The notes under the pieces were generated by a model. The model ran no database searches. It saw nothing but the letters and a program-made list of their open reading frames with translations, and was not told where the DNA came from. The position numbers were made by a program, and so were the translations under genes. Shown here piece by piece: positions 1,004-63,630 of a DNA stretch of 64,000 bases (positions within the stretch are counted from its first letter, which is position 1; each line of letters opens with the position of its first letter). The DNA is taken from positions 10,515,466 through 10,579,465 of the forward strand of contig CM045746.1 in NCBI GenBank assembly GCA_024760905.1. The letters run 5' to 3'. Source of the stretch: Plotosus lineatus (taxonomy: Eukaryota > Chordata > Actinopteri > Siluriformes > Plotosidae).

Positions 1004-3940
1004 ATGATGCAGAGGAGGAAGGTAGACATACTGTGTGTTCCAGAGACCAGGTGGAAAGGTAGCAAGGCTCGAAGCTTAGGAGCAGGGTTTAAGCTGTTTT
1101 ATCACGGTGTGGATGGGAAGAGAAATGGAGTAGGAGTCATCACCATTAAAGACTGGAATTCGCTACCACCAGACCTGATCAGCACCATTTCAGCAGCCAA
1201 GGAGCCAGCTAAATCCTTTGCTGAAATAGTAAGGGGGTCCTGCTAATCAGCTCGACTCTTGCGCGGTGAAGTAATGTCCTTGCGACGTATCACCCTAACC
1301 TATCAAGATCAAGATCAAGATCTTGAAGGAGGGGTTTGTCAGGAATGTTCTAGAAGTGAAAAGAGTGTCAGACAGAGTGATAAGTCTCAAGTTAGAAATT
1401 GAAGGCGTGATGGTCAATGTTGTTAGTGCTTATGCCACACAGGCAGGATATGAGCGAGAATAGAAGGAGAGATTCTGGAGTGAGTTAGATGAAGTGATGT
1501 AGAGTAGCCCCAGAGGTAAAAGAGTGGTCATTGGGGCAGACTTCAATGGACATGTTGGTGCAGGCAACAGAGGGGACGAGGAAGTGATGGGCAGGTTTGG
1601 TATACAGGACAGGAACATAGAAGGACAGATGTTGATCGATTTTGCAAAAAGGATGGAAATGGCTGTGGTGAATACTTTCTTCAAGAAGAAACAGGAGCAT
1701 ATGGTGACTTATGAAAGCAGAGGTAAGAGCACACAGGTAGACTACATCTTGTGTAGGCGATGTAATTTGAAGGAAGTCAGTGACTGCAAAGTAGTAGTTG
1801 GTGAGAGTGTTGCCAAACAGCATAGGATGGTGGTGTGCAGGATGACGCTGATGGTGAGAAAGGTGAAAAAGGCCAAGGCAGAGCAGAAGACAAAGCGGTG
1901 GAAGCTGAAAAAGGAAGAGTGTTGTGTTGTCTTCAAGAAGGAGTTGAAACAGGCTTTGGGTAGTCAGGAAGTGCTTCCAGATGACTGGTCAACCACAGCC
2001 AATGTGATCAGGGAGACCGGTAGAAGAGTACTTGGTGTGTCCTCTGGAAGGAAAGTAGATAAGGAAACTTGGTGGTGGAATGAGGAAGTGCAGGAGTGTG
2101 TACAAAAGAAGAGGTTAGCCAAGAAGAAGTGGGACACAGAGAGGACCGAACAGAATAAACAGGAGTACAGGGAGACATAGCGTAAGTCGAAGGTAGCGGT
2201 GTCAAAGGCCAAACAGAGGGCGTATGATGACTTGTATGATAGGCTGGGCAGTAAGGAGGGAGAAAATGATGTATACAGGCTGGCACAGCAGAGAAATAGA
2301 GATGGGAAAGACGTGCAGCAAGTTAGAGTGATAAAGGACAGAGAGGGAAATGTATTGACTGATGACAGAAGTGTGCTGGGAAGATGGAAAGAGTACTTTG
2401 AAGAGCTGATGAATGAGGAAAATGAGAGACAAAAAGAGTAGAAGGGGTGACCGTTGAGGACCAGGAAGTAGCAAAGATTAGTAAGGGAGAAGTGAGGAGG
2501 GCATTGAAGAGGATGAAGAGTGGAAAGGCAGTTGGTCCTGATGACATACCGGTGGAGGTATGGAATTTTCTAGGAGAGGAAGAAGTAGATTTTCTGACAA
2601 GAACATTTAACAAGGTCTTAGACAGTGAGAGGATGCCAGAGGAATGGAAGAGAAGTGTGCTGGTGCCCATTTTTAAGAACAAGGGAGACGTGCAGAGTTG
2701 TGGCAACTACAGAGGGATAAAGTTGATGAGCCATACGATGAAGTTATGGGAAAGAATAGTGGAAGCTAGACTAAGGGCAGAGGTCAGCATTTGTGAACAA
2801 CAGTTTGGTTTCATGCCAAGAAAGAGCACCACAGATGCAATGTTTGCTTTGAGGATGTTAGTAGAGAAGTACAGAGAAGGTTAGACGGAGCTGCATTGTG
2901 CCTTTGTGGATCTGGAGAAAGCATATGACAGGGTGCCAAGAGAAGAACTGTGGTATTGCATGAAGAAGTCTGGAGTGGCAGAGAAGTATGTTAGAGTGGT
3001 GCAGGATATGTATGAGAGATGTAAGACAGTGGTGAGGTGTGCTGTTGGTGTGACAGAAGAGTTCAAGGTGGAGGTGGGACTGCATCAAGGGTCAGCTCTT
3101 AGCTCCTTCTTGTTTGCTATGGTGATGGACAGGCTGACAGACGAGGTTAGACAAGAATCTCCATGGACTATGATGTTTGCAGATGACATCGTGATCTGTA
3201 GTAAGAGCAGAGAACAAGTGGAGGAAAATCTAGAGAGGTGGAGGTATGCCCTGGAAAGGAGGGGAATGAAGGTTAGTCTCACTAAGACAGAATACGTGTG
3301 TATGAACGACAAAGACCCAAGAGGAACTGTGAGGTTACAGGGGGCAGAGATAAACAAGGTGGAGGATTTTAAGTACTTAGGCTCAACAATCCAGAGCAAT
3401 GAAGAGTGTGGAAAAGAGGTGAAGAAGTGCGTGCCGGCAGGTTGGAATGGTTGGAGAAAAGTGTCCGGTGTGATGTGTGATAGGAGAGTATCGGCAAGAA
3501 TGAAGGGAAAAGTGTACAAGACGTTGATGAGGCCAGCGATGTTGTATGGTTTAGAGACAGTGGCACTGGGGAAAAGACAGGAGTCAGAGTTGGAGTTAGC
3601 AGAGATGAAAATGTTGAGGACATTTCTGATCAGTACATCAGAGGGAGAGCACATGTTAGATGTTTTGGAGACAAAGTCAGAGAGGCTAGATTGAGATGGT
3701 TTGGACATGTACAGAGGAGGGATAGTGAGTATATTGGTAGTAGGATGCTGAGGTTGGAACTACCAGGCAGAAGGCCCAGAGGAAGACCAAAGAGAAGATT
3801 TATGGATGTGGTGAAGGCGAACATGAAGGTTGTTGGAGTAAGAGTAGAAGATGCAGAGGATAGGGAGAGATGGAGGCAGATCATTTGCTGTGGCGACCCC
3901 TGAAGGGAACAGCCGAAAGGGAAAGAAGAAGAAGAAGATG
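1004..3940 (+). mobile_element. RTE-type non-LTR retrotransposon, 5'-truncated and broken
   Basis: Translated pieces in order give an apurinic-type endonuclease (ETRWKGSK near 1045, GADFNGHVG near 1530, YILCRRC near 1743), a linker, and a reverse transcriptase (MKSGKAVGPDDIP near 2515, NYRGIKL near 2706, MFADDIV near 3174). The 3' end is GGCGACCCCTGAAGGGAACA followed by (GAA)n. Short simple-repeat tails and this domain order fit the RTE clade (BovB relatives). The copy starts at the codons for MMQRR, so its 5' end is missing. In-frame stops (for example near 1500, 2178, 2439 and 2882) and frameshifts make it non-autonomous. A foreign 181-bp block sits at 1141-1321. Confidence 0.9.
1141..1321 (+). 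mobile_element. 3' fragment of a second LINE inserted in the RTE
   Basis: The RTE endonuclease reads continuously from GGAGTCAT (ending 1140) to CTTGAAGGAG (from 1322) when compared with the intact copy at 32.3-35.4 kb. The block between is foreign. It encodes a short LINE-like C-terminus (DWNSLPPDL) and ends in a tandem ATCAAG tail, as 3' ends of some LINEs do. No clear target-site duplication is visible. Confidence 0.7.
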
Positions 3941-11765: not shown

Positions 11766-14700
11766 TTCTCTCTTTCTTTTTCTCTCTCTGATTCTGTGCG
11801 AGTTGAAGTCACACGCAGGTGGAGCACTAAACACACATACACCTGATTCCACTTAATCTCAGTGTATAAAGACTAGCAGAGTGCTCATCCCAGTGCTAGA
11901 TGGTTCTCCCTCTTCCCCGTGATCTCTCTGGCTCTCAGCTCCGTGCTCCACCAGTTCCCACTTTAGTTTGATCTCCATGTTTCTCCACATCTCTAACAGT
12001 GACTACGATTTCCCAAGGGTGTGTTTTATTGTTCACAGGGAAAGCACTATAGCATGGGGAAATCGTAGTCACGGTTAGAGATGTGGAGAAACTCGGAAAT
12101 CAAACTAAAGCGGAAACTGTGGAGCACAGAACTGAGAGCCAGAGAGATTATGGGGAAAAGGGCCAATCTTCTAGCACCGGGAAGAAAGAGCACTGCTAGT
12201 CTTTATAGCCTGTGGTTAAATGGAATCAGGTGTGTGTGTTTAACACTCCACCTGCGTGTGACAGCCATGCCCCTCTCCAAAGTGCATTTCAACGCGCAAC
12301 TGTTTTGTGAGAGACCATAACAAACTAAAATAAAAACCACAGTGCAGTTAAAGCATAAGAACAATAAAGATAAGAATTTTAACCTTTGTGGTGGTGAGCA
12401 GTTGGCATACATAAATATTGGAGAGGAAGAGAAGAAGTGTATCCCCTTCCATAACAGAGAGGGAGAGAGGAAGCGGATTCCCTTCCATAACAGCTTCAGG
12501 TAAATCAGCCGAAGGTGTTTTTATCTCTTGCTACTGCTTTGCATGGATGACTCTTCTTCGGGATGTTACTTTCTTTTCTTGAAGAACATTTCTAATCTGG
12601 CTTGTTTCTGCCTTCTTTTCAAAACCTTACGGAGGTGGCTCATGACCTTATCATTCAGGTTTTCACAGTGCTGCTAGTGCTTTAGCTTAGCTTTAGTTCG
12701 AGTGGTGGGGTGGAAAAATCCTCCACCAACAGGAGAAGTAAGGCGCCTCCTTCCCTCTGCTAGCCTGTGGGAGATCCTTGGGCAAGATCGAGCACCCACT
12801 TAGCCCCCCATGCCAGGGTTTCTGTGAAGTCACGGAGATTGCATGGCACGAATTTTTCCTGTTGCCTTGCGGGTTGGCCTTGAATGGCTAAGGCTAAGGG
12901 AGTAAACCCCAACAGAAAATCCGGAGTGGATCCCCGTAGGCGGTTAGAAGTCGTATCTCATCCCTTTCCGGCAACTCCTGCACCCTCGATGAGTCTCCAA
13001 CTGTCTTGACTCTGTCTTGCCGTGGGATCAGGCTCATCAGGACGAGAGAGAGTGAGGCTGGTGCTGCGCAAGCCTCCTTCACTTTAATCCAAGTTCTGCG
13101 CAAGTCATGGCAACACCACCATGGACAACCCTTTACCCTCAAAGTCCTGTGGCGATGGGGGAATGGCGAAGCAGCAGGTGCGGAATCACTGGAAGCTGTA
13201 GCTGCAATCTTGCACACAGGCGGCTCAGGCCATATGGTCGTTCTTCTCTGATCGGGACAGCAGGGAAGTTCAGCAGCCCCCTGAGCGACCAGGCAGCCTC
13301 CACCACCTCCGTAGTCTGAGGACAGAGCTAGAAAAGGTGCTCTAAACATAGCCTGTTCCACAACCACCTGGCCAGCATACCGCGGCTAGCGGGTTCCCAT
13401 CTTGCGGCCGAAATCACAAGAAAATATCCAAGAAAATATTCAAGCTCATCCTTGCGTCATGGAACGTTAGAACTCTTCTCGACTCAACCACCTGTAAGTC
13501 AGGGAGACCAGAAGGACGTACGGCCCTCGTAGCCAGAGAACTCGCCCGCTACAATGTCGACATCACAGCCCTCAGCGAAACACGCTTTCCCGACAATGCT
13601 CAGCTCAGTGAGATTGGAGGCGGCTACACCTTCGCAACAATGAAGAGCGACGTGAGGCTGGTGTCGGATTTGCGATTAAAGACCATCTCGTACGAAAACT
13701 TGATTGTATACCAGAAGGCATCAACGATCACCTCATGAAACTCAAGTTCCCCGTGGACAGGAGGAGATCCGCAACCTTCATTAGCACCTATGCTCCCACC
13801 ATGACAAACTCTGAAGACACTAAGGAGGAGTTCTATGAAGAACTGGATGCCCTCATCTCCACTGTTCAGCAGGCAGACAAGCTTCTACTCCTTGGCGACT
13901 TTAATGCTCGTGTAGGTCACCAGGCATGGGAAGGAGTCCTCGGACCCCATGGAGTAGAGAAATGTAACAGTAATAGTCTCCTCCTGCTCAGAACATGTGC
14001 CACCCATGGCTTAGCCATCACCAACACCATGTTCTACCTTCCAACTCGTAATAAAATGTCGTGGATGCACCCTCGATCTAAGCATTGGCATCTTATTGAC
14101 TTCGTCATTGTCAGAGCAAAGGACAGGCAGAATGTGCATGTGACTAAGGCAATGTGTGGTGCTGACTGTTGGACAGACCATCGTCTCATCATTTCTAAGA
14201 CCAATTTGCACATTCAGCCCAAGAGAAGACCACAAGGCCAGACAGTTGTGAAGAAGCTCAACATCAACAAGCTCAAGCTTCCTTCCGTTCAAGAAGAACT
14301 AGTAGCAAGTTTAGAAAGCCAGCTGAGTGAGGCTACCGGAAACGACTGGGACTCTTTGAAGACATCTGTTCATTCTTTTGCCCTACAGGTGCTCGGACAA
14401 GCTACCAGGAACCACCAGGACTGGTTTGATGAAAATTACGTCAAAATCAGAGCCCTGCTGGAAGAAAAACGTCAACTCTTCAGAGCTCATCAGAGTGATC
14501 CCAACTCGGTCTCAAAGAAAGACGCCTACGTCAGTAAGCGTAGACAGGTGCAGATAAATCTCTGCGCTATGCAAGACACATGGCTAAGTAACAAAACCGA
14601 CAAGATTCAAGGCTTTGCAGATAGACACAACATGAAATGCTTCTATAATTCACTCAGGTGTGTATTCGGACTACCAACATCAGGCAGTTCCCCTTTACTC

Positions 14701-17700
14701 AGCGCGGCGGAGCAACATCATCACCAACAAAAACAAGATCATAGAGAGATGGGCAGAACACTTCAACGGCGTTCTAAATCATCCGTCGTCCATCAATGAC
14801 GAAGCTGTTCAACGCCTTCCCCAGGTGGACATAAACCCAGACTTGGACATAACTCCATAGGAGGACGAGGTTGCCAAGGCAATCAAGCAGATGTCGACTG
14901 GGAAAGCCCCTGGCTCTGATGCCACCCCTGCTGAAGTGTTCAAGACAGGCAGCCCTTTGCTCCTACACAAACTTACAGCACTATTTCAATCGTTTTGGGA
15001 AAGTGAGACCCTCCCTCAAGATTTTAAAGATGCCACAATCGTTCACATCTACAAAAGAAAGGGAAACATGCGATTGTGTGACAACCACAGAGGGATATCA
15101 CTTCTCTCTATCGCCGGCAAGATCTTTGCCCGAGTGCTCCTCAATCGTCTCCTGAAATATCTCGAGCAAGGTCATCTCCCCGAAAGCTAATGCGGATTCC
15201 ATGCAGGTCGAGGGACTATTAGTATGATCTTTGCTGCCCGTCAGATTCAGGAGAAAAGTGTGGAACAAAGTCAAGATCTCTATATCACTTTCGTAGATCT
15301 AACAAAAGCCTTCGACACTGTGAGCAGAGAGGGACTGTGGAAGATCATGTCGAAGTTTGGCTGCCCGGACAGGTTCTTGAAGATTGTCAGATAATTTCAT
15401 GATGGAATGATGGCCCATGTTCTTAACGATGGAAACGCCTCCGATCCGTTTCAGGTGTCAAATGGAGTTAAACAAGGCTGTGTCCTTGCCCCTACACTGT
15501 TCAGTTTGATGTTTTCGGCAATGCTGACCAATGCCTTTAGGGAGACTCCCCTAGGCATCCCCATCAAGTACAGGTGTGACAGAAAGTTGTTCAACCTCCG
15601 ACATCTGCAGGCCGTCACTAAAGTCAAAGAGACTGTGATTTGTGATCTGCTCTTTGCTGATGACTGTGCAGTCAGTGCCATCAATGCGCAAGAAATGCAA
15701 CAGGAAATGGACGCATTCTCGTCTGCCTGTGACAACTTCGGCCTCACCATCAGCATCAAGAAGACTGAAGTGATGTATCAGCCCGCCCCAGGAAAACCAT
15801 ATCAGGAACCAAACATCACAGTGAAGGGACAGCGACTTCAAGATGTGGAAAACTTCACCTACCTCGGCAGCACTCTCTCTCGCTACGCCAACATCGATGC
15901 TGAAGTCAGCAACCGCATTGCGAAGGCAAGCAGCGCTTTTGGGAGATTGAAGAAGTTAGTCTGGGAACGAAGAGGTATCTCACAATACACCAAGATCAAA
16001 GTGTACAGAGCAGTCGTCTTAACTATACTTCTTTATGGCTGTGAATCTTGGACCATCTACAGAAGACATGAGAAACTTCTCCAGCAGTCCCATCTACGTT
16101 GTCTCCGAAACATCTTTAATAGCCGCTGGCAAGATAGGATCACAAACACCGAGGTTCTGGAGAGAGCAGACCTCCCCAGCGTTACTACCATCATGCGCAA
16201 AGCTCAGACACAATGGGCAGGACACGTCTGCCGTATGTCAGACTCCAGGATACCCAAGCAGTTACTGTACGGTGAACTCAGTCGTGGCAGCAGGAAAGTA
16301 GGAGACCAGCGCAAACACTATAAAGACTCCATGAAAGCATCCCTGAAGGACTTCAACATCGACGTTGCAACGTGGGAAACCGCAGCATTTGACAGACCGG
16401 CTTGGCGCAACCTGATTCACAAAGGTGCCATCCACTCAGAGAATAAATATTCGAACGCAGCCAAAGATAAATGTCAAACATCAAGGGTCGAGCTGACCAA
16501 TCTACCAACACGACCCCCTCTCACTGGTGTCCAACTTGTGGGAGGGGTTTTCACACCCGTATTGGCCTTACAAGCCACCTGCGGACACATCACCCCGCCT
16601 CTTAGACACTGTGTTGTTTGTGTTGCTATGGTCATACTCGATATCGAGTCGACAAACATCATCATCATCATCATCATCAACGCTTTAGCTTAGCTTTAGT
16701 GCTTTAGCTTTATGAGGGTGATACGTACATAGTACTGTATCAACCACTTCCGGACTTCCCCAGGACAACTTTTTCAGAGTGATACATAGTATCAACAACT
16801 TTCAGACTTCCGGAAGTTGTGCACTTTTCCTGCCTCTCAGTGTCGTTTGTTTCTTGCGCATTTCTCGAGTTCAACTTCTGGTTTTTGTTCGGATTCCAGG
16901 ACAAAAAAAAAATCACGGAATTTTGTTTGGATTCCGATTTGTTCGAACTCTAGAGTGTTCGGATTCCGAGGCTCCACTGTAATCTAAGAGTAATATTTGT
17001 ATAATACTGAAATAAAAAAGTTACCATTTTTAATGAGAGCCACAAGAATAAAGGTCAGAGGATGTGAATCAAAAGTTTTATTTCCAGTTTCAACATAGCA
17101 AGCAGATTCCAATGAACCCTGGGTTTACACTAAGGACACGATGTTCGCGATCCCCATGATTTGAGAGAATTATGATGAGAGTGGAGTTTATGTGATGGAA
17201 TCGTGATGATTGTTGCAAAATGTTTGACTGTTACTAGGACATTGGAATCGCAGTACAGCGACTTGAACAGACTTTTACAGACCTTGATGCACCAACACAG
17301 GGGATCTTCATGAGTCTGGAAACAATTCCTTCATGTTTCATCTATTGAATGCACTCTGCTTCCTTTTTATTCCCCAATTGTCCTCAAAGAGGGATCATGA
17401 ATCGTGAAGCTTCAAGCTTTTATTGAACTGTACAGATGTGGACATGTGGACATAGTGGTCCCCAGAGTAAGCCCAGTGTAAGAGCTATTAGCTCTTAGAA
17501 ATAAAACTGAATGCTAAGATTTCTACTTACTCGGATTACAATGTGCCCTCAGGTGTTCATCTCGTTCCCTTTTTAGCTGGTTTGATTCAGTACTCAGCAA
17601 GTTGAATTTAATGCCCAGGACTATGATGACGATCAGTAGAATAACACACAGCACCATCAAACAAACCGCAGGTCGTCTGTAATATCTGCTCCATGTCTTG

Positions 17701-21767: not shown

Positions 21768-51937
<30,170 letters not shown>

Positions 51938-52178
51938 ACAGAGCTGCAATCAGTATGCTCCTAGCTACAGCAGGCCAATAAGGAGTTGATCAATGATCAG
52001 AACAACCCGGATCATGCTATTTGTTTTAAAAGGGAGATCAGATTGTAAGGTTTACATCCTCTCTGGATTCAGCGGGTGGGGTGCGTGCCTGGGGAGTGGG
52101 TCATCTTGGTTTTCTTAAATGCACTATTCCCACAGTGTTGAGTTTTTTTTTGTTTTGTTTTTTTTCTCTTTTTGTCTT

Positions 52179-52184
52179 ATTAAA
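52179..52184 (+). promoter_or_regulatory. Candidate fnip polyadenylation signal (ATTAAA)
   Basis: The common ATTAAA variant lies 242 bases after the stop, following a T-rich stretch. A longer 3' untranslated region cannot be excluded. Confidence 0.4.
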
Positions 52185-52257
52185 GTAACGCGAGCAGATG
52201 ATGCTACTTTTTAAAAGTTGTGTAATACGGTATGACAGGCGACAAATTAAAGGAAAC

Positions 52258-52459
52258 CCCATCATGAGGACAGCCTGATAGTTGGAGAAGCAACTTTGGG
52301 ACTGAAAGGTCGCTGGTTTGGTTCCCAAGTGTGGAGGCGGTGGGGAAGTGAGAAGCACCTTGCCGTCCTCCACATAAATGGCTGATGTGCCCTTGAGCAA
52401 GGCACCTAACCCCCAACTGCTCTTCGGGCACCTCCAATGTGTGTGTGGCAGCCCACTGC

Positions 52460-52503
<44 letters not shown>

Positions 52504-52555
52504 CACTTTGAATGGGTTAAATGCAGAGGAAATCATTTCCCTTATATCTAAATTT
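52258..52555 (+). repeat. SINE, fourth family, with internal (GT)n
   Basis: B-box-like GGTTTGGTTCCCA, then GAGCAAGGCACCTAACCCCC, CAGCCCACTGCTCC, (GT)n at 52463-52501 and TTGAATGGGTTAAATGCAGA. This layout is a widespread fish SINE type. Confidence 0.7.
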
Positions 52556-52559
52556 GTTT

Positions 52560-53179
52560 AAAAAATCATAAGAGTTAGCATCCAGGTTGTATTTTGAAAG
52601 TGGTCTGCTTTGACAAGGTTCGAAAGCCAACTTCAAATCTGCAAAGGCAATCCCATAAGAGTTTAAAAAGCATCACAGATTAAAATGCTAATCCTGCCTC
52701 TGTCGCTTCATGCCCTTGATAAATATTTTTGCACTGCATTTTATTTAATTTATCGCAGCGATGTTGATGCTCTGGGTTAAATTGTACACGCTGCCTAAGA
52801 TTAACTCAAAGCAAACAAGACTGGACATCACTAAAATGGAAAATGGTTGGCTGTTTGTTTACACCCAGTTTCTGGAGATCTGCTTTCTTAGAGAATTGCA
52901 TAATTTGGTAGTTCTGATGCAGTGAATTGAGTAGGATTAATATTAAGATTCAAATGAGTGTATGATTCGTTTTGGATTTGGAAGATCTCTAGAAAGAGGA
53001 CCAGTTTACATATACTGAAGACTCATAAGAATTTAGTCTTTATTACAGGAAACAACTCATACACATCAATTATTAAGTCACTTTAATTTCCTGCCGCAGT
53101 TGATTTGGGGATGGATTTTGGCTCTGCCTTGTGGTGGCATTTATGTTTACAGTTCATTCAAAAAGACCAAGAGAGAATT
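52560..53179. other. Downstream of fnip: nothing recognised
   Basis: Unique-looking sequence. It may include distal fnip 3' untranslated sequence, but I see no evidence. Confidence 0.4.
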
Positions 53180-53621
53180 GTTGAAGCTTGTATTAGAGCT
53201 GTGCGGAGATTAAATTTGATTAATATGTATATATGAACATAATGAGAGATTTCCTTTTGGCCTTTTCTCTTTACCAGGGGTCGCTACAGCGAATGATTCA
53301 CAAAATTTGGTTTGGCATAGGTTTTTACGTCGGATGCCCTTCCTGACAACCCTTTTTAGCAAGGGAGAGAAACATGATGACGGCTTTGCAGCTACTCTTT
53401 ACGAAAGTCAACAATGGTTCTTTTACATGCCTCTCACCATAGACAGTGACAACCTTAGTTAGCTGCACTAGGGGGACAGTGACAACCTTGTGGGGAGTGG
53501 GACTCGAACCCCCAACCTTAGGATCAGCGATCTGGCGCCCTATACCACCAGGCCACCACTAATATGAACATAATCTCAACCTCAAATTTAATCTCCGCGC
53601 AGCTCTAATAGAAGCTTCAAC
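53180..53621. mobile_element. Palindromic MITE split by a SINE
   Basis: Arms GTTGAAGCTT...TTAGAGCTGTGCGGAGATTA (53180-53226) and its near reverse complement (53581-53621) pair over about 41 bases. The SINE between is bordered by ATATGAACATAAT at 53231-53243 and 53562-53574. Without it the element would be about 110 bases. Confidence 0.8.
53244..53561 (-). repeat. tRNA-derived SINE with RTE-derived bipartite tail
   Basis: Second copy of the chimeric family of 44575-44918. Plus-strand GGGGTCGCTACAGCGAATGA, then TTTTTACGTCGGATGCCCTT and CCTGACAACCCTTTTT, then the shared body and head. The 13-bp target duplication is intact. Confidence 0.87.
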
Positions 53622-53761
53622 TATATATAATATACACACACACATACACACACACAGTATATATAATGACAACTTATATACAGAATATGAACTTAATGCA
53701 GAGATAAATAAGACAATAATGCTCTCTCTTTATATTATATATGTATATATGTATGTATGTT

Positions 53762-54622
53762 CAGACGCTCCCCGACTTACGTTTTTACTTGGTTCCGGAC
53801 AGCCGAACGTAAGTAGAAACTGAACATAGGTTGTTCCAGTGACGTATGACGCTCATACTGCACTATACATCCATAAATACCATTGCCGTATCTCATAAAA
53901 CACCCTTAAATCAATTATTATAAACATAACAATGTAAAATAATATCAACATTAATTTCAAATAAATTAAATTCAAGCAAAATAATTTCAAATTGATTAAA
54001 ATTTATCTATTTGAAATTATTTTGCTTGAATTTAATTGCATTATAATATAACAAATATGTTATATTTGATACTGTATTTTATATAACCTTTAACATTCTC
54101 TATGATGCGATCTTTCTGCTTGTAAATAGTTCCAATGGTCGACAGATGGACACTTTACATGAAGCTGAGCCGAGTCACTTTACATGAAGCTTAAAACAGC
54201 CAGTCAACGCTTACAATATGTGAGGCATTCAACACCGAAAGTAGTTTACTTATTTTGTGCTTGAGACAAAGCGCGGGTTATACGGACTTCTGGTCTTTCA
54301 AGTGAGCAAGGGCGCTGTTGAATGCTGGTTTAGTAATCAGCCTGCACTGATGTGAATCACCAGCAGAGCGGACAGTTCTTTCTTTTTTGGATTTGGGTTT
54401 TCATTCATTTTACAACGCTCTTTGCTTAACTGAGTATGCATGGTAGATTGCGCCGATCCGAGCAGATAGTTAATTCATCTCTGTGTATGAGACTTGCACC
54501 CATGCTAGTAGGCTTACGTTTCTGACCAACCATATTTGCTTAGGGTTACAAAAGTCCGCAAAACAGTGTAAACACAAAGATCACACAGACTACGTCTTAA
54601 CACAAGGGTAGCATGCTATATA

Positions 54623-57559: not shown

Positions 57560-58487
57560 TGTGGGTGGTATCAGTCAGAGCCCCACCCACTCTCAATTTG
57601 TTCTTTTTGTTGCCATAAATATGAAAGATTTAATCCACTGTTCTGGGCTGCTACAGAAGCTGAAAAACCTAATCTGAGAACCTGCATGTGAATCATGAAT
57701 CGTTCACGTACGATTGACTCTTAATTGTCTGAAAGAGAGAGGTGGGGGGTTTTCGATGAGAGTGTGTTTTGGCTCAGTGTCGTGGTCTTCTCTTAGACCT
57801 GTGCTTTGAATAAACTCTGTGGGGTCATGTCACTCAGGAGATGATGATGGTGATCCAAAATCCTTCCAGTTTCTCGATTTAAAATTGTTGCTGGTTATGT
57901 GTTATATGATATGCTATGCTACAGTACTGTTGAACTTTTTATGCTGGTAGTGTGTATTATTGTTCAACAGACTTGTCTCTCAGTTTCCTGATCTGAAGCT
58001 CATGAGGATTTATGGGAGGAAAGTTGTGTGAGAAATGTAGATTGTGGACTCATTCCTGTACACTGCAGGATTGCTGATGAAATATTTAAAAGTCACCAGA
58101 TACGTTTCAACAAAGCCTTATTTAAAAATGCAGAACTTGCAGAAAATGCAGCAGTTCCCCAGCGCAGAGCTTTAAAAACAATCTGACAGTGCAGGACACC
58201 TGAGAAAGATGCACACTTGAGTTCCTTTTAATTATACAGCCAGCTTTAATGTCCACTGATGAAGCCAAGACAAGAGCGACAGAAACAATAAGAAGAGGCC
58301 TCAAGAGAAACTTCAATTCAAGAGAGGTAACCATGAGCCATGTATCAGATAATCAGATTCACAGAATGCGGTGAGTCGTGGCGAGTGAATGAAGGCAGAA
58401 AATGGGTTCATGGGTTTATTTAGTATTGGTGGTCTGGTTACCTCTGCCAGGAGGTTATGTTTTCGTCTCTGTTTATTTATTAGTCTT
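57528..58487. other. Intergenic: (GT)n then nothing recognised
   Basis: (GT)n at 57528-57557, followed by unique-looking sequence. Confidence 0.45.
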
Positions 58488-58500
58488 ACTGTTTGTTTCT

Positions 58501-58854
58501 GGGCAGTGGTGGTCTAGTGATATAGGGCGCTGGATCGCTGATCCAAAGGTTTGGCGTTCGAGTCCCACTCTCCACAAGGTTGTCACTGTCCCCCCCCAGT
58601 GCAGCTAACTGGGTTATCAAAGGCCATCCATGTCTCTCACTGTCTATGGTGTGAGGCATGTAAAAGAACCATTGCTGACTTTCGTAAAGAGTAGCTGCAA
58701 AGTCGTCAGCGTGTTTCTGTCCCTTGCTAAAAAGGGTTGTGACAGGAAGGGCATACGACGTAAAAACCTCTGCCAAAATCAAAACGTGCGAATCAGATGA
58801 TTCGCTGTGACGACTCCTGAGTAAAAGGGAAAAAGCCGAAAGGAAGACTGACAG
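58501..58854 (+). repeat. tRNA-derived SINE with RTE-derived bipartite tail (plus copy)
   Basis: Head GGGCAGTGGTGGTCTAGTGA, B box CGTTCGAGTCCC, body ending GTCAGCGTGTTTCTG. The tail is AAAAAGGGTTGTGACAGGAA, GGGCATACGACGTAAAAACC, then GATTCGCTGTGACGACTCCT and AAAGCCGAAAGGAAGA. This is the clearest copy of the chimera. Confidence 0.9.
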
Positions 58855-58867
58855 ACTGTTTGTTTCA

Positions 58868-59190
58868 GGGCAGTGGTGGTCTAGTGGTATAAGGTGCCGG
58901 ATCGCTGATCCAAAGGTTTGGCGTTCGAGTCCCACTCTCCACAAGGTTGTCACTGTCCCCCCACAGTGCAGCTAACTGGGTTATCAAAGGCCAGCCATGT
59001 CTCTCGCAGTCTATGGTGTGAGGCATGTAAAAGAACCATTGCTGACTTTCGACAAGAGTAGCTGCAAACCCGTCAGCGTGTTTCCGCCTGGCGAGCTGTC
59101 CAGGGTGTACTCTGCCCTCACCCTGAGTTGGCTGGGATGGGCACCAGCCTCCCCGTGACCCTAATTAGGATGAAGCGGTTACAGAAAAGG
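58868..59190 (+). repeat. tRNA-derived SINE with LINE2-like tail, adjacent to RTE-tail copy
   Basis: Head and body are almost identical to 58501-58854 until GTCAGCGTGTTTC. It then continues GGCGAGCTGTCCAGGGTGTA and ends CCCTAATTAGGATGAAGCGG. ACTGTTTGTTTC(T/A) repeats flank both SINEs. Confidence 0.9.
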
Positions 59191-59214
59191 AACTGAACTG
59201 TTTGTTTCTGTGCA

Positions 59215-61590: not shown

Positions 61591-62200
61591 ATATTTCATA
61601 GATGAGTATAAGTACTAATGATTATTGATATTATAAATATTATTACAGCTATTTCATATCAGTCGGTTTTAGATTTAAATTGGAACTGAGCGCTGCTGCT
61701 CTATTTTTGTTCCACGGAAACCCACAGGGAGAGTGAATGAAAGGCCATGAGCTGAATAATGGATGGGTCTATTCTGTACATTAATGTGAAATCCTGCTCC
61801 AGTGTGTGCATACGCTACTCGATCCTCTCTGACCACTTACAATTAACTGCTATTCTCTGAAATCTTATTATTACACAATCTACATATGCTCTGTGGTTTA
61901 ATTTAATATATTTTAGATATACTAGTAATATATTTTTTATTTATTATTTAATCAGATAATGCTAATGAATTTAATAGAAAAACTTATAATTCGGACTTAG
62001 TGTACAGCAAGAAGCTTTCTGACTGGTCCACTGTCATGGGATTTGAAACTATTATTCTGAGTGGATAATGCCTGAATCGAAATGATGGGCACTCACGGTT
62101 TGTCACAGTCACTTGGAGCAGGTAAAACCATAATCACACTTTAAACTGGAAAAAAAAATTTAGTTTATTCATATTTTCCTGTATAGTACAGGTTCTTCTT
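61591..62200. other. Intergenic: nothing recognised
   Basis: A/T-rich, unique-looking sequence. Confidence 0.45.
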
Positions 62201-62202
62201 CA

Positions 62203-62815
62203 TCTTCATCTTCTTTTCCTTTCGGCTGTTCCCTTCAGGGGTTGCCACAGCGAATCATATGCCTCCATCTCACCCTATCCTCTGCATCTTCTTCCCTTAC
62301 GCCAACGACCTTCATGTCTTCCTTCACCACATCCATAAATCTCTTCTTTGGTCTTCCTCTAGGCCTTCTGCCTGGTAGTTCCAACCTCAGCATCCTACTA
62401 CCGATATACTCACTATCCCTCCTCTGTACATGTCCAAACCATCTCAATCTAGCCTCTCTGACTTTGTCTACAAAACATCATACATATGCTGTCCCTCTGA
62501 TGGACTCATTCCTGATCCTACCCATCCTCATTAGTCCCAAAGAGAACCTCAACATTTTCATCTCTGCTACCTCCAGCTCTGCCTCATGTCTTTTCCCCAG
62601 GGCCACTGTCTCTAAACCATACACAATATTTAAAAAATATATTTTGATATTCAGTATGTTGATTTCAAATATAATGTTTGCATTTTGTATTCTGGCAAAA
62701 GTTTTACACCGGATGCCCTTCCTGACGCATCCCTCTGCATTTATCCGGCTTGGGACCGACGTGAGGGCGGGCACTTCTTTGTGCCCCCCCCCATCCCACC
62801 CACCCCACCCACCCA
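62203..62815 (-). mobile_element. Internally deleted RTE copy
   Basis: 62203-62623 is the 3' part of the RTE (RRDSEYIGSRMLRLELPGRR on the minus strand) and 62690-62815 is the RTE leader (CACCGGATGCCCTTCCTGAC on plus). About 65 A/T-rich bases lie between, so endonuclease and reverse transcriptase are deleted. Confidence 0.8.
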
Positions 62816-63630
62816 CAGCTGTATTCCTGTATAGTACAGTATATACTGAAATCATTTTACGAAGCATTTCAATGTAGTATGTACTAAGTAGGCACGTTCT
62901 TTCTGAGGGATTATTCAGTGATGTTCACCTCACTTTGGGCAGATAATTATTAATTTTACTCATCAAGCTGTCATATATATGATTCCTTTCTCTTTTCACA
63001 ATTTTTCTAGCCACTGTCGAATAAGGAACTCTGATGGGTTCGGGTTTTGTGTTAGATCAGAGTGCCTGATTCCCATAGCTATTTCTCCTATCCATATTTC
63101 ATCCTCCTCTTCCTCCATCCTTTTATCTTGTTCTCCTCCAGCTTCTCCTTATGCATTATTGAAGCAAACGGCACTTCAGGAACCAAATATTCCGTGTCTT
63201 TTACATCTTTATATTTAATCTGTTCGGCCTCATAAATTAATTTTATGGTCACTTTTACACAAAGTGTATGACCGTACTGATTCTGCGCTCGCCAGAGTTC
63301 AAACACGGCCTTCAGATATTAAAGAGAATGATCAGCAAACACCAAACCGTAATCAAAGAAAGGATGGTGTGATAATATAAAATAAATTATTCTGATATAA
63401 CATTCTCACATATCATTCCCGGAGCTGTACATGTTACCGCAATGTTGTATAAAAGTTGAAAAGCAGATGTTCTCAGGACACCAAGAACGCTTGACTGACT
63501 AGTTTTTAGAGAAGGGAAGAACTGCAGGGCTTAGAAAATACTCTGTTAACTTGCACTTTGTTAGCTGTGAGAGCTGTTGAACCAAAAATCTCCTGCAAAC
63601 ACAATACAAAATCCCCAGAGAAGAATTAAC
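62816..63630. other. Unassigned sequence
   Basis: A minus-strand frame at 63306-63088 (FELWRAQNQYGHTLCVKVTI, then a Lys/Glu-rich run) matches nothing I recognise. No other feature seen. Confidence 0.3.

What the first reader, a model, noticed from the sequence alone, without database searches (positions are those of the whole stretch)
58501..58854. SINE whose tail is a fusion of RTE 5' leader and RTE 3' terminus
Three SINEs (44575-44918, 53244-53561, 58501-58854) share their tRNA-like head and body with the LINE2-tail SINEs of this window but switch tail. The new tail first matches the RTE leader (AGGGTTG...CAGGAAGGGCAT...CGTAAAA, compare 35310-35345 on the minus strand). It then matches the RTE 3' end (CGCTGTGGCGACCCCTGA, compare 3890-3905). 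This mirrors the known Bov-tA design in ruminants, where a tRNA head is joined to a 5'+3' remnant of the RTE element BovB. One tRNA head using two different LINE partners suggests a tail swap.
Basis: partly seen in the sequence, partly recalled or inferred. Interest (0 to 1): 0.75.

Follow-up and report, generated by a model that had tools for sequence, protein, structure and literature searches.

The report
tRNA-SINE with a bipartite RTE tail
A very abundant family of short jumping elements in this animal genome shares its tRNA-like front with an older family but carries a back end made of two stitched pieces of a different long element, a known kind of partner switch seen here in a new and very successful example.

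Summary
Three SINEs (58501-58854 +, 44560-44911 -, 53251-53560 -) share a tRNA-like head and body with the window's LINE2-tail SINEs up to ...GTCAGCGTGTTTCTG, then run into an RTE 5'-leader piece joined directly to the RTE 3' end. Single RTE copies carry these pieces at opposite ends. The fused tail is a genome-wide family: 21,771 exact matches to a two-part pattern, reversed control 0. The first 30 of these on contig 1 are all SINE copies; a standalone RTE fusion gave 3 matches. Twenty full-length copies of those 30 lie on average 3.4% from their consensus. Target-site duplications were found in 42 of 53 full-length copies (mismatched-pair control 19 of 600), median 16 bp against 13 bp for LINE2-tail copies. 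It is a new member of a known kind (bipartite-RTE SINEs in hagfish; CORE-SINEs with L2 or RTE tails in mammals). Added here: all four head/tail combinations occur more than 800 times each, so it was not one clean swap; the tail repeat changed from (GAA)n to (GACA)n; the RTE joint falls between two complementary arms; the RTE leader holds a twister-like motif.

The parts
58501..58854 (+). RTE-tail SINE, full length; direct repeat ACTGTTTGTTTC on both sides
58503..58576 (+). tRNA-like head
   Evidence: Rfam tRNA 19.4 bits here, below the gathering score of 29; 33.6 bits, above it, in sister copies L002, L003 and window 44836-44909. A and B boxes recognised by eye
58577..58719 (+). SINE body shared with LINE2-tail SINEs
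58719..58795 (+). RTE 5'-leader piece; aligns from GTCCC, in the 3' half of a twister-like motif, to GCGAATCA
58794..58854 (+). RTE 3'-end piece (CAGATGATTCGC...), ending in a (GACA)-type repeat
44560..44911 (-). second RTE-tail SINE, full length, 94.6% identical
53251..53560 (-). third, older RTE-tail SINE with old head states; direct repeat ATTATGTTCA
58868..59190 (+). young LINE2-tail SINE with the same head, beside the 58501 copy (end approximate)
35280..35388 (-). RTE leader with twister-like motif 35327-35388 (29.7 bits)
32327..32371 (-). RTE 3' end of the same copy
51001..51136 (-). RTE leader of a second copy, starting AATGCAGCC, twister-like 51054-51136 (42.0 bits)
46702..46747 (-). 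RTE 3' end of the second copy
62192..62823 (-). internally deleted RTE copy with leader and 3' end, between 16-bp direct repeats CTGTACTATACAGGAA
3600..3930 (+). 3' end of another RTE copy; the 39 other scored genome matches are 97-99% identical over most of it

Best explanation
It is a tRNA-derived SINE family whose LINE2-type tail was replaced by a bipartite RTE tail: a piece of RTE 5' leader joined to the RTE 3' terminus. RNA polymerase III would transcribe it from the tRNA-like head (inferred). The RTE reverse transcriptase would recognise the RTE 3' end and insert copies by target-primed reverse transcription (inferred from the shared 3' end and the target duplications). The tail most likely arose when reverse transcription of RTE RNA skipped the coding region, and a second template jump or a DNA recombination joined the product to a LINE2-tail SINE body (inferred). 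The family then expanded to tens of thousands of copies. Head or tail exchange between the two tail classes probably happened again afterwards. Shown: composition, copy counts, low divergence, target duplications, head/tail mixing. Inferred: promoter use, RTE dependence, the jump mechanism.
For: Composition. Counts, each with a reversed control of 0: fused tail 21,771; RTE leader with its own downstream sequence 9,754; LINE2 junction 28-mer 3,137. The first 30 fused loci on contig 1 all have SINE-side sequence directly upstream; 20 are full length, 9 are cut at the 5' side, as target-primed insertion often leaves, and 1 (L071) runs into a withheld stretch. K2P to own consensus averages 0.034 for the 20, and 0.099 for 22 of 30 LINE2-tail loci. 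Target duplications: 42 of 53 full-length RTE-tail copies (control 19/600) and 18 of 35 LINE2-tail copies (control 7/600); median lengths 16 and 13 bp, Mann-Whitney p = 0.0006 (lengths typed, simple repeats included). One RTE copy of the window has a 16-bp duplication. Older RTE-tail copies (L003:2656, L005:1924, L017, L047, L074) end GAA-rich like the RTE. RTE-type copies hold reverse transcriptase domains.
Against: The young tail differs from the RTE 3' ends seen: of 40 RTE 3' ends in hand (22 of them from loci chosen by similarity to 3600-3930) none shows a (GACA)n array, though L084 has GACGACAGAAG and L055 has lost its tail. Only 5 exact genome matches join that RTE coding end to GGAAGACAG; its baseline count did not complete. 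So the present RTE partner is not pinned to one subfamily. Two of three RTE copies of the window gave no direct repeat of 8 bp or more, so the RTE duplication length rests on one copy. Copies were drawn by exact patterns or best score, which favours young ones. 11 of 53 full-length copies had no duplication scoring 9 or more.
Confidence: 0.88

Rival explanations
1. 'One tail swap' is the wrong frame: the RTE tail was acquired early by an old-head SINE, and the young head later moved between the RTE-tail and LINE2-tail classes by template switching, recombination or gene conversion. This refines the main reading rather than excluding it.
For: Exact genome counts of head x tail: old head + RTE tail 872, young head + RTE tail 10,825, young head + LINE2 tail 822, old head + LINE2 tail 977; reversed controls 0. 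In 102 aligned copies: RTE-tail young 49, old 2, other or missing 4; LINE2-tail young 9, old 22, other or missing 16 (from the alignment). The two old-head RTE-tail copies are among the most diverged (L003:2656, window 53251). L023:2560-2860 has an old-type body with the same body/RTE junction. In a head/body tree the LINE2-tail copy at 41207 falls among RTE-tail copies (support 70-71).
Against: Head state rests on two nearby nucleotides; parallel substitution cannot be excluded. Support in the tree is mostly low.
Confidence: 0.55
2. The RTE joint was made by reverse transcriptase crossing a stem: RTE leader GCGAATCA pairs with the 3'-end TGATTCGC in the same RNA, and the jump deleted everything between.
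For: The joint in the SINE falls between the two arms; 16 of 19,950 possible joints lie within 3 nt of both (arms chosen after seeing them). The arms are the longest leader/3'-end complement in the RTE copy L070. Of 68 SINE joints scanned, 55 keep at least 7 of 8 pairs, the left arm being the best within 45 nt. The old copy L023 has both arms changed together (GCAAATCAT/ATGATTTGC) with a 29-nt loop.
Against: An 8-nt complement arises in 59 of 500 shuffles of the leader, so complementarity alone is not significant. In window copies A and B the longest strict complement is another, 6-nt one. Only one L023-type copy was seen. Only four elements in hand had both ends, so matching of leader type to 3'-end type across RTE subfamilies is untested.
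Confidence: 0.15
3. The three window copies are related only by local duplication and no family exists.
For: 58501 and 58868 lie side by side and share the head variant TTTGGCG, which differs from the family consensus.
Against: The 40 best copies lie on 18 contigs, and most full-length copies have their own flanks and duplications.
Confidence: 0.01

Closest known systems
Hagfish SINE2-1_EBu, SINE2-9_EBu, SINE2-10_EBu and SINE1-1_EBu (PMC7245038, passages seen)
   Same: tRNA (or 7SL) head; tail made of an RTE 5' UTR piece plus the RTE 3' end; the paper calls bipartite RTE derivatives common and proposes chimera formation with older SINEs
   Different: Named families of another animal; the passages seen describe tails exchanged among UCON3-domain SINEs, not an L2-to-RTE change. 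Sequences were not compared here
Bov-tA and Bov-A2 of ruminants (Table 1 of PMC3747384)
   Same: tRNA head with Bov-B (RTE) tail; Bov-A2 is listed with the 5'-end of BovB
   Different: Here a standalone fused RTE is nearly absent by exact pattern (3 hits). Sequences were not compared here; the 5'+3' make-up of Bov-tA itself is recalled
Mammalian CORE-SINEs: MIR with L2 tail, Mar-1 with RTE-3_MD tail (Table 1 of PMC3747384)
   Same: One SINE superfamily with L2 or RTE tails
   Different: The table gives no 5'-leader piece for Mar-1; here both tails occur in one genome under the same young head
Twister ribozyme at the 5' end of RTE elements (PMC7761336, passage; Schistosoma work named in a passage of PMC11620745)
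   Same: Twister motif at the RTE 5' end, proposed to process the 5' end of the RNA
   Different: Stated in 2020 as the authors' result in preparation, without this genome or SINE tails

Membership tests
tRNA-derived SINE | 5' tRNA-like region | tested here: met
   Rfam tRNA 33.6 bits, above gathering 29, in L002, L003 and window 44836-44909; only 19.4 bits in the 58501 copy; ARAGORN found no tRNA gene in the window
tRNA-derived SINE | dispersed, uniform copies with target duplications | tested here: met
tRNA-derived SINE | transcription by RNA polymerase III | not testable with these tools
   no expression data
Bipartite-RTE SINE | RTE 5'-leader piece joined to RTE 3' end | tested here: met
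Bipartite-RTE SINE | RTE elements with both pieces present in the same genome | tested here: met
   three window copies and L070 carry both ends; 9,754 leader matches
Bipartite-RTE SINE | mobilised by that RTE | not testable with these tools
   duplication length agrees, on one RTE copy
Bov-tA type with standalone Bov-A-like relative | a family of fused RTE without tRNA head | tested here: not met
   3 exact hits for RTE leader context plus fused 3' end; diverged ones would be missed
Type-P1 twister ribozyme (in the RTE leader) | Rfam RF03160 above gathering score 67.2 | tested here: not met
   best 48.4 bits, E 4.6e-8 in 28 kb; 42.0 bits in the window
Type-P1 twister ribozyme (in the RTE leader) | conserved core, with the cleavage site at the element's 5' terminus | tested here: met
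   core found in 9 leaders with up to 4 errors allowed; 5 of 9 start AATGCAGCC after unlike flanks, 2 start with one or two changed bases, 2 are eroded or truncated. That cleavage falls there is read from the alignments and recalled knowledge of twister
Type-P1 twister ribozyme (in the RTE leader) | self-cleavage | not testable with these tools
   needs in vitro transcription

The most novel reading that the evidence does not exclude
RTE RNAs carry short complementary arms in the 5' leader and at the 3' terminus that bring the ends together, and reverse transcriptase crossing this stem is why bipartite RTE tails keep arising. SINEs then pass heads between LINE2 and RTE tails repeatedly, so head and tail evolve as separate modules.
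Probability: 0.12. Interest if true: 0.7.

Novelty: new member of a known kind. Interest (0 to 1): 0.42.

Why it matters
One genome holds both states of a partner change, LINE2 tail and RTE tail under the same young head, in many copies of low divergence, with older intermediates still readable. That makes it a good natural test of how SINEs change partner LINEs, whether by one event or by repeated module exchange, and of how the two-piece RTE tail forms.

Tried and rejected
Splicing as the source of the RTE 5'-3' joint was considered and set aside by eye on the few copies: the joint keeps the AG before ATGATTCGC, and of the leaders seen only the 51 kb one has GT at the break. A standalone fused RTE as immediate parent: searched, 3 hits. 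An RTE subfamily with the SINE's (GACA) tail as true partner: none of 40 RTE 3' ends, 5 exact hits. Linking leader type to 3'-end type across RTE subfamilies: tried with L067 and with all leaders in hand; only four elements had both ends, so it stays open. Naming the host: not done; a fish was guessed from contig sizes and not verified; the FNIP domain fits an animal. A consensus filter kept only 2 sequences and was redone. Copy number: 10 of 19 incidental junction copies match the exact pattern; four of the 19 re-see loci chosen by that pattern, leaving 6 of 15; scaling 21,771 gives about 41,000-54,000, an order of magnitude only.

Full report
What is there. Up to ...GTCAGCGTGTTTCTG they align with seven LINE2-tail SINEs of the window, one of which (18422) lacks the head. 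One LINE2-tail copy (58868) is 94.5% identical over head and body and lies next to the 58501 copy. After that point LINE2-tail copies run into a LINE2-type 3' end (recognised from recalled LINE2 tails), while the three run into an RTE leader piece and then an RTE 3' end. Against a single RTE copy (L070) the leader piece aligns from GTCCC to GCGAATCA and the 3' piece from CAGATGATTCGC onward.

It is a large, young family. Besides the query itself, 39 further full or nearly full genome matches were scored, at 94-96% identity, on 18 contigs in all (only the best 40 of 4,334 candidates were scored). The exact two-part pattern CAGGAAGGGCAT-N(30-60)-GATTCGCTGTGGCGAC occurs 21,771 times, with no match for the reversed pattern. 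The first 30 of these on contig 1 were fetched; all 30 have SINE-side sequence directly upstream and none has the RTE leader context. Twenty are full length, nine are cut at the 5' side and one runs into a withheld stretch. Mean K2P distance to the family consensus is 0.034 for the 20, against 0.099 for 22 of 30 LINE2-tail loci fetched by an exact 28-base junction (3,137 matches). Exact patterns favour young copies in both sets. RTE leaders still attached to their own downstream sequence occur 9,754 times.

It moved by retrotransposition. Of 53 full-length RTE-tail copies, best-scoring ones included, 42 have a target duplication by the script's score; mismatched flank pairs reach it in 19 of 600. 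LINE2-tail copies: 18 of 35, control 7 of 600. Median lengths are 16 and 13 bp, p = 0.0006. A window RTE copy (62.8-62.2 kb) has a 16-bp duplication; two others gave none of 8 bp or more. The difference in length agrees with two different LINE machineries but does not prove it.

Which RTE. The nearest RTE 3' ends read GATGATTCGCTGTGGCGACCCCTGAAGGGAAAAGCCGAAAGGAAAAGAAG. The young SINE has extra bases in the last stem-loop and ends in (GACA)n. Of 40 RTE 3' ends in hand none shows that array (a 41st row, L083, is a SINE; L055 has lost its tail; L084 reads GACGACAGAAG). The exact RTE-plus-GACA pattern has 5 matches, without an answered baseline. Older SINE copies end GAA-rich like the RTE. So the tail began RTE-like and probably changed within the SINE.

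Not one clean swap. With a young head (GTGGTCTAGTGGTA) or old head (GTGGCCTGGTGGTA) and either tail junction, exact counts are: young+RTE 10,825, old+RTE 872, young+LINE2 822, old+LINE2 977; reversed controls are 0. In 102 aligned copies only two RTE-tail ones keep the old head, and both are strongly diverged. An old copy, L023:2560-2860, has an old-type body and the same body/RTE junction but keeps about 29 more bases between the two RTE pieces. Repeated exchange of heads or tails, or parallel change, is needed.

The RTE joint. In a fold of the SINE tail the leader arm GCGAATCA pairs with TGATTCGC across the joint. Of 19,950 possible joints 16 would lie within 3 nt of both arms (the arms were chosen after seeing them), and 55 of 68 copies keep at least 7 of 8 pairs in a lenient scan. 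Against this, an 8-base complement is not rare by chance (59 of 500 shuffles), and two window RTE copies do not show it as their longest strict complement. I hold it as an idea, not a result.

The RTE leader. Rfam finds a type-P1 twister-like motif in RTE leaders: 48.4 and 46.5 bits in L070 and L067, 27.4-34.0 bits in four more, 42.0 and 29.7 bits in the window; all are under the curated cut-off of 67.2. Nine leaders hold the core with up to four errors allowed; five begin AATGCAGCC after unlike flanks, where twister cleavage would fall. A 2020 review mentions, as work in preparation, truncated but active twister ribozymes at RTE 5' ends (passage). The SINE keeps only a worn 3' half.

What is known. 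The hagfish paper states that RTE elements often give bipartite derivatives and that these join SINE heads (passages; Kojima 2018, which it cites, is not held). The 2013 table lists L2- and RTE-tailed CORE-SINEs, Bov-tA and Bov-A2, and no fish SINE with an RTE-named partner.

Noticed in passing
window 51054-51136 (-), 35327-35388 (-); L070:503-593 (-), L067:231-328: Twister-like ribozyme motif in the RTE leader, with predicted cleavage at the element's 5' terminus.
   Followed up: partly
L023:2560-2860: Old SINE copy with a longer RTE joint (about 29 extra bases) and old-type body; candidate intermediate, one copy only.
   Followed up: partly
window 58480-59205: A LINE2-tail SINE sits against the RTE-tail SINE; the repeat ACTGTTTGTTTC occurs three times and both share the head variant TTTGGCG, as if one inserted in the duplicated target of the other, with possible gene conversion.
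   Followed up: partly
window 62192-62823 (-): Internally deleted RTE copy that keeps leader and 3' end with a 16-bp target duplication; a separate example of RTE internal deletion.
   Followed up: partly
window 43385-44098 (+): Exon-like ORF with folliculin-interacting protein middle domain, E 2e-16.
   Followed up: no
window 13735-14799 (+): ORF with endonuclease-reverse transcriptase domain, E 2.6e-7, followed by a long ORF at 15407-16693 that reads like reverse transcriptase by eye; apparently another LINE type.
   Followed up: no
L074:1095-1148 (-): UnaL2 LINE 3' element, 42.5 bits, below its cut-off of 55; possibly a further LINE type in this genome.
   Followed up: no
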